Source of the DNA: an uncultured Pseudodesulfovibrio sp.
GTDB lineage: Bacteria; Desulfobacterota; Desulfovibrionia; Desulfovibrionales; Desulfovibrionaceae
Direction of reading: 5' to 3'
NCBI RefSeq assembly: GCF_963675635.1
Contig: NZ_OY776488.1
Span: 3,455,028-3,519,027, forward strand
Length of the DNA stretch: 64,000 nt
Of the stretch, positions 24,854 through 27,713 are shown one piece after another. The notes under the pieces were generated by a model. It worked only from the letters and a program-made list of their open reading frames with translations, searched no databases and was not told the DNA's origin. Every line of letters starts with the position of its first letter. Position 1 is the first letter of the stretch. A program made the translations under genes and the position numbers.

Positions 24854-25591
24854 TCAAGATGATTCCTGCTGAGTTCGCGCCAAAACCAGAATATCCACGC
24901 CTAAGGCTCCGGCTTGTTTAACTGTTCTGGCGCATTCTCTCAGCGTTGCACCTGTGGTGTAGACATCGTCGACGAGCAACACGGTTTTTTCTGCCATGCA
25001 CTTTGCCCTTGCAGCGAATGCATTTCTGATATTCTCCATCCGTTCCTTGTGGCCGAACCGCGTCTGGGGTGGCGTATTGCGGATGCGAGTCAGCCCGTCT
25101 TTCAAAACCGGAAGTTCAAATGTCTTGCCAATGATTTTCGAAATCTCCAGACTTTGGTTGAACCCTCGCCAAAGCAGTCTGCGAGTGTGCAGTGGGACCG
25201 GAACAATAATATCCGGCATGCGAGTGTGTTGCGCTTGAAAAGTGGTGCATGCAAGCGTTGAAAGGAAATGGCTCCGGCCAAAATTGTTGTTGAATTTGTA
25301 CGAAATGATGAGTTCTCGCAACACGTCGGCATGCTGTCCGTGGAAGTACAGGGCATCCCATGGCGGTGGGTTGAGGCGGCACTCGGGGCATTGGCTTGGT
25401 GGGGAATCCGTACGTCCTGACATGAGGCCGCAGGTGGGGCAATAACCCCCAGTACGGAGAGGTATTGCCGCTGTGCAGGACTCGCACATGTGTCCGCTGC
25501 TGCCCATGACCACGCCACAGACCGGACAGCGTTTCGCCGTTAATCCAATCTTGTGTGCCAGCGAATGGAGCAGGCCGGGTGTGTCTGTCAT
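24854..25591 (-). CDS. comF: ComF-family phosphoribosyltransferase-like protein
   Basis: A 245-residue protein. The N-terminal part has two cysteine pairs that can form zinc ribbons (CPVCG with CESC; CPTCG with CPEC). The C-terminal part is a type I phosphoribosyltransferase fold with the PRPP loop VLLVDDVYTTGATL and a VPVPLHTRRLLWRGFNQS segment. ComF homologues act in DNA uptake in competent bacteria, but most are of unsettled function. The start ATG overlaps the preceding stop codon (ATGA), so it is translationally coupled to the FMN reductase gene. Confidence 0.88.
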   Translation of the reverse strand: MTDTPGLLHSLAHKIGLTAKRCPVCGVVMGSSGHMCESCTAAIPLRTGGYCPTCGLMSGRTDSPPSQCPECRLNPPPWDALYFHGQHADVLRELIISYKFNNNFGRSHFLSTLACTTFQAQHTRMPDIIVPVPLHTRRLLWRGFNQSLEISKIIGKTFELPVLKDGLTRIRNTPPQTRFGHKERMENIRNAFAARAKCMAEKTVLLVDDVYTTGATLRECARTVKQAGALGVDILVLARTQQESS

Positions 25592-26193
25592 TGAGCTGCG
25601 ATCCATGCGGTGCGTCCGAGTTCTACAATCTGCTTTTCGAAATCCGCATGCTGTTCCAAGTCATTCCTTTCGTCCAGGCCCCGGAAAACCGTCGGGGTGT
25701 TCAGGGTGAAATTGAAGCTGTTCAGGAAATACTTGAGAGTGACTTTCGCTCCATCAAAGAGTGTGTCGCCGGTAGGCCGTCCCGCATGCAGCACAGCGTG
25801 TGCCGTCCGTTTCGGAAGGCCTGCCATCCATGGTTCACCCAGTTGTTTCGCCGCCCAGAATTGCTGACTCCGGTCAATCCACGTCTTGAACAGGGACGGA
25901 AGATGATAAAAATAAATGGGCGAGGCAAAGAATGCGGTCCTGGCCGTGAGCAGCGGCTCGAACATGTCGTACGCTTCATCCTGCTGGCCGAGTACGCATC
26001 GTGCTCTGCCTTCCTTGAATTCGGCTTCTTCGCAGTAACCGCAAGCCAGACAGGCCATGACTGAGTGATTGCGAATATAGATGATTTTGGCATTTCCACC
26101 GGCTTCGCTCACTCCCTGCGCCAGCAGGGTGGCAGTTCTGTCCGAGTTGCCGCCGCGTCGGTGGCTGCATGCATAGATCACGCTTTCGTTCAT
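25588..26193 (-). CDS. NADPH-dependent FMN reductase / flavodoxin-like protein with Cys motif
   Basis: A 201-residue flavodoxin-fold protein. The phosphate-binding loop is ACSHRRGGNSDRTATLL near residue 10, and FFASPIYFYHLPSLFKTWIDR is the typical flavin-side segment. It also holds CLACGYC around residue 50 and a further Cys in GRARCVL. This is the pattern of iron-sulfur flavoproteins and related oxidoreductases. It overlaps both neighbours by ATGA junctions: the selenoprotein candidate upstream and comF downstream. It may be the electron donor for the small selenoprotein. That link is inferred. Confidence 0.88.
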   Translation of the reverse strand: MNESVIYACSHRRGGNSDRTATLLAQGVSEAGGNAKIIYIRNHSVMACLACGYCEEAEFKEGRARCVLGQQDEAYDMFEPLLTARTAFFASPIYFYHLPSLFKTWIDRSQQFWAAKQLGEPWMAGLPKRTAHAVLHAGRPTGDTLFDGAKVTLKYFLNSFNFTLNTPTVFRGLDERNDLEQHADFEKQIVELGRTAWIAAQ

Positions 26194-26435
26194 GCGTCCT
26201 CTTTATCGAAAAGGGGTTTTTTGCGGGTCATCCGTGCCACTACATGATCTTCATGTTCTTCGAAGGTGAAGTTCCAGTCCGGGAAGATGTGTTCCTCATG
26301 GCGCACTTGAGCCGCTCCTTTGAGAGAAACCCAGGCTTCGATGGCATCAGCTTTGGCGAAACGGAGATACCAACCTATCTCCAGTCCCACACCTCAACAC
26401 TTGTCGCGGATATCCACGAGAATCGGTTGGCTCAT
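26190..26435 (-). CDS. Small selenoprotein candidate with in-frame UGA (Sec14)
   Basis: Starting at the ATG at 26435 (directly after the upstream TAA, with CGGAG before it), codon 14 is TGA at 26394-26396 and the same frame continues to 26190. This gives an 81-residue protein whose N-terminus reads MSQPILVDIRDKC, then Sec, then GVGLEIGWYLRFAK. Reading only from the in-frame GTG at 26390 would give a 66-residue piece without a ribosome site. A hairpin with the geometry of a bacterial SECIS follows the TGA. The 3' end overlaps the FMN reductase start (ATGA), which supports translation to the end. The family is unknown; the Cys-Sec pair suggests thiol/selenol redox work. Confidence 0.8.
26353..26396 (-). 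promoter_or_regulatory. Bacterial SECIS element with its UGA-Sec codon
   Basis: After the UGA codon there are 11 bases, then a perfect 7-base-pair stem (GGAGAUA with UAUCUCC) capped by GGUUGG. The loop starts exactly 18 bases after the UGA, the same distance as in the E. coli fdhF element, and opens with GGU, the bases SelB reads. All of it lies inside the coding sequence, as expected for bacteria. Confidence 0.78.
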
Positions 26436-27056
26436 TTAGAACTCCGAGAAGAACGGGTTGTGGTTTTTTTCATCCGAAACAGTGGTCTCCGGACCGTGAC
26501 CTGACAATAACCTTGTTGCGGGCGGCAGGGTGAATATGTGCTCGGTCACCGAACGTTTGAGTACCTCCAGGTCGCCGCCGGGAAAGTCTGTGCGCCCGAT
26601 GGACCTGTAGAAAATTAGATCGCCGACAAAGGCGGCTTCGGCTTCAGGAAAGTAGAAAGTCAAGCTGCCTCTGGAGTGCCCCGGCGTATGGAAAATGGTG
26701 CAGTCAAAACCGGCAAACCGTGTTTCTCCCGCCTCAACATCCTGCCATTCATAGGTGTCCAGAGGCGGCAGGCCCATGTCTCCTCCTTTGCCAAGCCAGG
26801 AGTCCAGCAGGTCGGCGTCTTTTTCACAGCACAAGATCGGTGCGCCGGTGACCTCTGACAATTCCCTGTTGCCTGCGGTGTGATCAAAGTGCAGGTGAGT
26901 GTTCAGGATGTGAGTTACCTTAAGGTTATTAGCCTTGAGATACTGTACGATTTCAGCTGGATTTCCGCCGGGATCAATCACCACGGCTTCCTTGTCACCT
27001 GCCAGGACGTAGCAGTTTGTTTGGAGCGGGCCGAGATTAAATACTTCAATAACCAT
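26436..27056 (-). CDS. Metallo-beta-lactamase-fold hydrolase (glyoxalase II-like)
   Basis: A 206-residue cytoplasmic hydrolase. The metal-binding motif THLHFDH is at residues 53 to 59, and further ligands appear in HTPGHSRGS, in FVGDLIFYRSIGRTD and near the C-terminus in LLSGHGPETT. Length and motifs match the short glyoxalase II-like or YcbL-type group acting on thioesters. It overlaps the nitroreductase stop (TAATG) and is followed at once by the selenoprotein candidate, so all are cotranslated. Confidence 0.92.
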   Translation of the reverse strand: MVIEVFNLGPLQTNCYVLAGDKEAVVIDPGGNPAEIVQYLKANNLKVTHILNTHLHFDHTAGNRELSEVTGAPILCCEKDADLLDSWLGKGGDMGLPPLDTYEWQDVEAGETRFAGFDCTIFHTPGHSRGSLTFYFPEAEAAFVGDLIFYRSIGRTDFPGGDLEVLKRSVTEHIFTLPPATRLLSGHGPETTVSDEKNHNPFFSEF

Positions 27057-27577
27057 TAGAATTCCTCCAGCATGAGTTCAGACAGGTCTTTGCGCGTGGA
27101 ACTTCCCTTCTGATCGGGATGTCCGAGGGCGATGACAGCCTGGAGTTCGTAGGTTTCAGGGGAGAGGTTCAGTGCCCCCAGAGATGTCGCCTGATCGTTG
27201 ACTATCTGACCGAGCCAGACTGTGCCTATGCCGAGCGCATGGGCGGCGAGCAGCATGTTCTGGATGCAGGCCCCGGCTCCTTGGTGATCTTTCATTTCAC
27301 TATACATGGCCTCTTTTTCAAGCATGACACAGATGCATGCAGCAGAAGCCCGGACAACGTGTGCGTATTTGGTGCATTCAGCCAGCGCGGCGTGACGCGG
27401 GTCGTCGCGGGTGATGACCATGAAGCGCCATGGTTGGTTGTTCAGACCGCTTGGAGCCCACTGGCCGGCTTCGAGGATGGTGGTGATGTCTTCTCGGGAA
27501 ACTGGTTCGTTCGTGTATTTACGAATGGACCGACGGGAAAAGATGGCCTCGAGAACCGGATTCTCAAATGTAATCAT
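27056..27577 (-). CDS. Nitroreductase family protein
   Basis: A 173-residue FMN-dependent oxidoreductase. Features include FSRRSIRKYTNEPVSREDI near the start, the WAPSGLNNQPWRF flavin-binding block, QNMLLAAHALGIGTVWLG and the final ALGHPDQK. The ATG at 27577 with GGAG is preferred to the upstream one at 27595, which lacks a site. It is the first gene of the redox operon running leftward to comF. The physiological substrate is unknown. Confidence 0.93.
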   Translation of the reverse strand: MITFENPVLEAIFSRRSIRKYTNEPVSREDITTILEAGQWAPSGLNNQPWRFMVITRDDPRHAALAECTKYAHVVRASAACICVMLEKEAMYSEMKDHQGAGACIQNMLLAAHALGIGTVWLGQIVNDQATSLGALNLSPETYELQAVIALGHPDQKGSSTRKDLSELMLEEF

Positions 27578-27713
27578 AATTGTGTTCTCCTTCATGATGA
27601 GTGTATGTATTTAACTTAGGAAGCGAAGACGGGCAAGTTATGTGACCAATTGGGGTCGTGCAGCGTATAGGTATGAGCAGATGAGTTGGAGCCGTATGGC
27701 TGTCAGGAAATAA

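What the first reader, a model, noticed from the sequence alone, without database searches (positions are those of the whole stretch)
26190..26435. Undescribed-looking small selenoprotein with a textbook SECIS
An ATG directly after the upstream stop codon opens a frame with TGA at codon 14 (after DKC) and then continues unbroken for 67 more codons to an ATGA overlap with the next gene. Eleven bases after the TGA is a perfect 7-base-pair stem with loop GGUUGG, and the loop starts 18 bases after the TGA, exactly as in E. coli fdhF. A Cys-Sec pair next to FMN reductase, nitroreductase and MBL hydrolase genes suggests redox chemistry. Automatic callers would start at the in-frame GTG at 26390, lose the first 15 residues and hide the Sec site. 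I do not recognise the family among known selenoproteins.
Basis: partly seen in the sequence, partly recalled or inferred. Interest (0 to 1): 0.92.

Follow-up and report, generated by a model that had tools for sequence, protein, structure and literature searches.

The report
New TusA-fold selenoprotein in sulfate reducers
A tiny, overlooked protein of sulfate-reducing bacteria appears to read a stop codon as the selenium amino acid selenocysteine, and its predicted shape matches proteins that hand sulfur around the cell, so it may be a selenium-tuned version of that machinery.

Summary
Window 26190-26435 (-) encodes 81 residues with TGA at codon 14 and a bacterial-type SECIS hairpin. The genome, close to Pseudodesulfovibrio, carries selA, selB, selC and selD. 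Homologues occur in 46 of 60 genomes and 164 of 348 of the class, own genome included; all 150 rows printed there (my count) contain an in-frame TGA. In the 53 loci read, TGA sits at the Sec position before the hairpin. The stem shows compensatory change and fewer synonymous changes. A related Cys family has an invariant Cys at the Sec position. Neither family has a convincing Pfam or NCBIfam match; the 119-family inventory of May 2026 names no TusA/SirA-type family. Predicted structures of both match TusA/SirA/TsuB best. Sec sits where TusA has its catalytic Cys, behind a vicinal Cys. In 42 of 52 distinct loci the next gene encodes a flavoprotein with four invariant Cys. I propose a sulfane-sulfur/electron relay with a Cys-Sec centre reduced by that flavoprotein. 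Selenoprotein: near certain, no wet-lab proof; fold: likely; function: inference.

The parts
26190..26435 (-). selenoprotein gene, 81 residues with Sec at position 14 (MSQPILVDIRDKC-U-GVGLEIGWYLRF...)
   Evidence: homologues
26394..26396 (-). in-frame TGA read as selenocysteine (U14), directly after Cys13
   Evidence: TGA in 42 of 42 distinct aligned sequences, pattern in 53 of 53 loci
26363..26382 (-). bacterial-type SECIS hairpin inside the coding sequence: stem 26382-26376 / 26369-26363, loop GGTTGG 26375-26370
26436..27056 (-). upstream gene: MBL-fold hydrolase, glyoxalase-II-like
   Evidence: PF00753 7.2e-35; nearest solved structures include hydroxyacylglutathione hydrolases; in 47 of 60 loci, 40 of 52 distinct
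25588..26193 (-). downstream gene overlapping the selenoprotein stop: flavodoxin-fold FMN reductase with four invariant Cys (C48, C51, C54, C66; CX2CX2CX11C)
   Evidence: PF03358 2.3e-09; 49 of 60 loci, 42 of 52 distinct; Cys in 49 of 49
27056..27595 (-). nitroreductase-family gene upstream of the MBL gene
   Evidence: PF00881 3.6e-29
24854..25606 (-). ComF-like phosphoribosyltransferase gene at the downstream end of the run
   Evidence: TIGR00201 110.4 bits, below the model's cut-off of 233.55; PF00156 1.5e-06

Best explanation
Shown by computation: a real selenoprotein of Desulfovibrionales, a family absent from the libraries checked, with Sec inserted through a hairpin right after the UGA. 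Likely: its fold is that of TusA/SirA sulfur carriers, with Sec where TusA has its persulfide-forming Cys and an extra Cys next to it (mostly Lys-Cys-Sec-Gly). Inferred: Sec14 attacks sulfane sulfur (a persulfide of a donor protein or polysulfide) and carries it as Se-S; Cys13 resolves this to a Cys-Sec selenenylsulfide, releasing sulfide or passing sulfur on; the flavoprotein encoded next to it, probably carrying an Fe-S cluster, re-reduces the Cys-Sec pair. Separate estimates: selenoprotein 0.97, TusA-like fold 0.8, sulfur relay reduced by the flavoprotein 0.3-0.35. The confidence below is for the whole statement, weighted towards identity and fold.
Confidence: 0.55

Rival explanations
1. 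Same selenoprotein, but a pure thiol/selenol redox protein: the vicinal Cys-Sec pair cycles between selenenylsulfide and selenolthiol to reduce peroxides, quinones or electrophiles with electrons from the flavoprotein, without carrying sulfur.
For: Cys13 is invariant beside Sec in A2, while the Cys sister family mostly has Thr or Ser there (Cys in 2 of 19 rows), so the pair is special to the Sec form; the neighbours are a nitroreductase, an FMN reductase and a glyoxalase-II-like hydrolase, which look like electrophile or redox stress genes.
Against: TusA-fold proteins known to me act in sulfur transfer rather than peroxide reduction (recalled); no thioredoxin-type fold among the matches shown.
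Confidence: 0.3
2. Metal or metalloid handling: the Cys-Sec pair binds mercury, arsenic or a soft metal and delivers it to a reductase or exporter.
For: Several catalogued families with a CU motif bind metals or belong to organometal systems: SaoL, SaoC, HgcA, MbdU. In one other clade the upstream gene is a GDT1 cation antiporter (L056).
Against: None of the five genes of the conserved run scanned is a metal-resistance gene; none of 21 members matches those NCBIfam models.
Confidence: 0.12
3. Selenium carrier: it holds Se(0) or selenide for SelD or selenium detoxification.
For: YedE and YedF, the latter with a SirA-like domain, are associated with selenium genes (PMC5322559, passages); a TusA gene behind a YedE-like transporter and a YedF-like gene occur in this genome (the YedE and YedF labels are by eye).
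Against: selA, selB and selD lie far away on the chromosome, and tRNA-Sec about 27 kb away. By my hand count 133 of the 184 class genomes without the gene have SelB over the cut-off, so the Sec pathway does not need it.
Confidence: 0.1
4. Not a selenoprotein: TGA is a real stop of a 13-codon leader, and the main protein restarts at GTG 26390.
For: The mechanical ORF starts there; codon 16 is GTG in 23 of 42 distinct sequences.
Against: Codon 16 is GTA, GTC, GTT, CTT, CTC or ATC in 10 of 42 and CTG or TTG in 9. Residues before the TGA are invariant at D8, R10, C13 while their codons vary. The hairpin is conserved with compensatory change. The Cys sister family reads through the position with Cys.
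Confidence: 0.02

Closest known systems
TusA/SirA sulfur carriers (PF01206; E. coli TusA, DSY4693, TsuB/YeeD)
   Same: Predicted beta-alpha-beta-alpha-beta-beta fold, best solved matches, Asp six residues before the reactive residue, size about 80 residues
   Different: No PF01206 match; CPxP replaced by UG[VIL][GST]; Sec for the catalytic Cys; an additional vicinal Cys; own gene run with flavoprotein and hydrolase
Cys-containing sister family, often beside mnmE (alignment A3; no convincing Pfam or NCBIfam match)
   Same: Profile homology E 5.4e-9, invariant Cys at the Sec position, same predicted fold
   Different: Cys, mostly preceded by Thr or Ser; CGLVP motif; directly downstream of mnmE in 21 of 30 loci fetched; both families coexist in the window's genome
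Catalogued selenoproteins with a CU motif (KCU-star/DUF466, SaoC, SaoL, HgcA, MbdU, Csac_0668 type)
   Same: Adjacent Cys-Sec (names and motifs read in Table 1 of PMC13188914)
   Different: None of 21 members matches any of the listed NCBIfam models; the two matches reported at all are single members at E 0.12 and 0.14 to unrelated models
Selenoprotein thioredoxin reductase tail (Gly-Cys-Sec-Gly), recalled, not tested
   Same: Vicinal Cys-Sec-Gly next to flavin chemistry
   Different: There the pair is on a C-terminal tail of the flavoenzyme; here it is in a separate small protein near the N terminus

Membership tests
bacterial selenoprotein | In-frame TGA conserved in homologues, frame open on both sides | tested here: met
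   42 of 42 distinct aligned sequences, 53 of 53 loci; all 150 rows printed (my count) contain a TGA, the rows of 14 weaker genomes were not printed
bacterial selenoprotein | SECIS hairpin just downstream with loop guanines | tested here: met
bacterial selenoprotein | selA, selB, selC (tRNA-Sec), selD in the same genome | tested here: met
bacterial selenoprotein | Homologues with Cys at the Sec position | tested here: met
   Cys sister family, invariant Cys in 19 of 19 rows, aligned to Sec; no Cys version of the Sec family itself was seen in the loci read
bacterial selenoprotein | Selenium incorporation shown by experiment | not testable with these tools
   needs 75Se or mass spectrometry
TusA/SirA (PF01206) | Match to the family HMM over the curated cut-off | tested here: not met
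   PF01206 not among the families listed at E up to 1 for any of 24 members, the locus is not among the 4 places in the own genome at E up to 10
TusA/SirA (PF01206) | CPxP motif | tested here: not met
   UG[VIL][GST] in the 21 A2 rows
TusA/SirA (PF01206) | TusA fold | tested here: met
TusA/SirA (PF01206) | Persulfide transfer by the reactive residue | not testable with these tools
   no experiment
families in the 119-family selenoprotein inventory | Convincing match to an NCBIfam or Pfam model | tested here: not met
   NCBIfam; best E 0.12; Pfam; best E 0.0061 in one member, DUF6578 in 6 of 24 members at best 0.023
iron-sulfur flavoprotein Isf (downstream gene) | Compact motif CX2CX2CX5-7C (given for amoebal ISFs in PMC3164229, passage) | tested here: not met
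   CX2CX2CX11C, four Cys in 49 of 49: Isf-like, not called Isf

The most novel reading that the evidence does not exclude
The first selenocysteine branch of the TusA superfamily: a dedicated sulfane-sulfur (or selenium) reductase of sulfate-reducing bacteria, in which a Cys-Sec-Gly TusA-like carrier strips chalcogen from persulfides and an iron-sulfur flavoprotein releases it as sulfide or selenide, while its Cys sister works in tRNA wobble-uridine thiolation next to MnmE.
Probability: 0.28. Interest if true: 0.82.

Novelty: new variant of a known kind. Interest (0 to 1): 0.7.

Why it matters
The ORF finder misses the Sec codon and gives a truncated 66-residue protein, and NCBIfam has no matching model, so a selenoprotein present in 164 of 348 genomes of its class has probably gone unnoticed. 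It adds a fold, the TusA-like sulfur carrier, that I did not find in the published 119-family inventory. Sec in a sulfur-transfer fold raises a testable question: what does selenium do for sulfane-sulfur chemistry in organisms that live on sulfur? The Cys sister family beside mnmE is a second unnamed family and gives a natural Sec/Cys comparison in the same cell.

Tried and rejected
Leader peptide plus restart at GTG: rejected. Antisense ORF 26169-26504 (+): set aside as a shadow of the conserved gene, no test of its own. A Pro-to-Sec reading (Cys13 equal to the TusA Cys, Sec at the Pro) was my first idea; the ungapped spacing and the profile alignment to the Cys family put Sec on the Cys instead. 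One TusA sequence against A1 gave nothing; with a 23-row TusA profile a weak match appeared. The solved-structure sequence search with A2 gave only chance-level hits (best E 1.4). Rfam gathering scan of the window: four tRNAs only. Viral contigs: 11 pattern matches, none a relative; plasmids: no match; PHROGs: none.

Co-occurrence with SelB over the class: SelB over the curated cut-off in 284 of 348. By my hand count, judging each genome from its best E, 151 of 164 gene-positive and 133 of 184 gene-negative genomes (Fisher p 1.6e-6 on those counts). All 13 gene-positive genomes without it are drafts with at least 180 contigs or under 86% complete. The association is partly phylogenetic: the large genus g30 has no match even where SelB is present, so I do not lean on it.

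Cys version of the Sec family itself: none seen in the loci read. 14 genomes with weaker matches (E above 1e-11) had no row printed, so Cys forms or hits to the sister family among them are not excluded. Phylum sample: 6 of 395 including the own genome, all six in the window's own family.

Published mention: searches (20 of 126 listed; 15 of 24 listed) showed no TusA/SirA-type selenoprotein in titles or abstract starts. Of the papers opened I saw named sections or passages only. Two papers of 2023 and 2025 on new selenoprotein families are cited in the review; one was asked for and is not held, the other was not asked for. Table 1 gives library model ids for the families cited to them, NCBIfam for all but one; NCBIfam and Pfam were scanned.

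Full report
Observation. The protein is MSQPILVDIRDKC-U-GVGLEIGWYLRFAKADAIEAWVSLKGAAQVRHEEHIFPDWNFTFEEHEDHVVARMTRKKPLFDKEDA. Of 2501 TGA triplets in the window, four have a comparable perfect stem and this one alone is open on both sides.

Genome. The window is G000:C1:3455028-3519027 of a single 3.5 Mb contig. The closest named homologue is a Pseudodesulfovibrio metagenome-assembled genome, 85% identical. selA at 521029-522396, selB at 527334-529223, tRNA-Sec at 3454609-3454698, 330 bases before the window, and selD at 2543451-2544380, itself with one in-frame TGA, are all over their cut-offs.

Distribution. 46 of 60 genomes and 164 of 348 genomes of the class in 33 of 59 genera have a match, the own genome counted in both; in a phylum sample 6 of 395, again with the own genome, all in the window's own family. 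Of the 150 rows printed (my count) all contain a TGA and 145 have exactly one stop, a TGA; five have further stops (G024, G125, G236, G068, G082). Rows of the 14 weakest genomes were not printed. I read 53 loci: the Cys-TGA-Gly and hairpin-start pattern is in 53 of 53, 42 of them distinct over 48 bases. The 5' half of the stem was part of the pattern used to collect them, the 3' half was not; for the 30 loci nothing was lost to the pattern (30 of 30).

RNA. In 42 distinct sequences five of seven stem pairs never vary. Pair 5 is GC in 22, AU in 15, GU in 5; the loop-closing pair is AU in 38, GC in 1, unpaired in 3. 99.0% of 294 cells pair, 16 cells are changed on both sides and the covariation score is 0.153; 0 of 500 shuffles reach any of these. 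Two pairs have a change on both sides, which 26 of 500 shuffles equal; further pair types do not differ from shuffles. No slid version has a double change. The tool warns that relatedness alone can exceed such shuffles. Shared residues use the same codon in 0.864 of comparisons in codons 19-25 but 0.573 in codons 26-79, 0.601 in 15-18 and 0.625 in 1-13. So the hairpin looks selected as RNA, and the stretch before the TGA as protein.

Sec/Cys pair. A search with A2 brought up a Cys-containing relative in G251 (E 4.2e-5). Searching with it found 65 of 199 genomes, including the window's own (four rows carry TGAs and are cross-hits to the Sec family, one of them, G123, being that genome's only match). 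Nineteen rows give an invariant D-x5-C-GLVP motif. Profile comparison with the Sec family: 95.9%, E 5.4e-9, Sec column on the invariant Cys. In 21 of 30 loci, and also in L114 and L115 but not L116, this gene follows mnmE. TusA passes sulfur towards MnmA for 2-thiouridine, and MnmE-MnmG modify the same wobble uridine (PMC5372745, passages), which fits a TusA-like role for the sister family.

Neighbourhood. Nitroreductase, MBL hydrolase, selenoprotein, flavoprotein, ComF in one direction: flavoprotein next in 49 of 60 loci, MBL in 47 of 60. The other 11 of 60, mostly Solidesulfovibrio, have none of these neighbours in the stretch held. The flavoprotein has Cys48, 51, 54, 66 in 49 of 49, an iron-sulfur-like motif with wider last spacing than that given for Isf. 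In G044, G133 and G129 the MBL and flavoprotein genes adjoin without the selenoprotein between; G129 has the selenoprotein elsewhere, and in one locus of that type (L056) it follows a GDT1 gene. G030, the one congener of 36 without the selenoprotein, has no clear flavoprotein orthologue (best E 0.0012) and its best MBL match is 41% identical. The link is real but loose.

Mechanism. Shown by computation: Sec insertion signals, conservation, Sec/Cys equivalence. Likely: TusA-like fold. Inferred: Sec14 as chalcogen acceptor, Cys13 as resolving residue, flavoprotein as reductant. A vicinal Cys-Sec-Gly recalls the tail of mammalian thioredoxin reductase (recalled).

Novelty. In Pfam 24 members gave only weak, unrelated matches (best E 0.0061 in one member; DUF6578 in six, best 0.023); in NCBIfam 21 members gave two single matches at E 0.12 and 0.14. 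The 119-family Table 1 of PMC13188914 has no TusA/SirA entry (section 7 read whole; word search), nor has the 2022 review by word search. deep-Sep reported nine new families (results read in part); none with a domain name is this, and its three hypothetical proteins have NCBIfam ids in Table 1, which one search scanned. Whether a database already holds the truncated protein could not be checked.

Noticed in passing
L114:5285-5551 (own genome C1, 1743284-1743550): Unnamed Cys family with D-x5-C-GLVP motif and TusA-like predicted fold, directly downstream of mnmE; no convincing Pfam or NCBIfam match. Candidate tRNA thiolation factor.
   Followed up: partly
window 25588-26193 (-): FMN_red-family flavoprotein with four invariant Cys in CX2CX2CX11C in 49 of 49 loci: probably an iron-sulfur flavoprotein with non-standard spacing.
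   Followed up: partly
own genome C1:3454609-3454698, 330 bases before window position 1: tRNA-Sec gene, 81.8 bits.
   Followed up: no
L073 (own genome C1:2543451-2544380): selD match contains one in-frame TGA, so selenophosphate synthetase is probably itself a selenoprotein here.
   Followed up: no
L067 and L066 (own genome): A TusA gene behind a transporter that looks like YedE and a YedF-like TusA-domain gene (labels by eye); published work links YedE and YedF to selenium.
   Followed up: no
L056 4706-4975; L058 5280-7436; L062 2674-4617: In Solidesulfovibrio-type genomes the selenoprotein sits in other contexts: after a GDT1 cation antiporter gene (L056), before a histidine kinase (L058), after a MoeA-PBP fusion (L062).
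   Followed up: partly
L116:5559-6545 (-): In G251 the Cys relative lies beside a gene for a 4Fe-4S protein on the other strand instead of mnmE.
   Followed up: no
G082:C49:18814-19041: This match carries a TAG and a TAA besides the TGA, so this copy may be decayed; not read.
   Followed up: no
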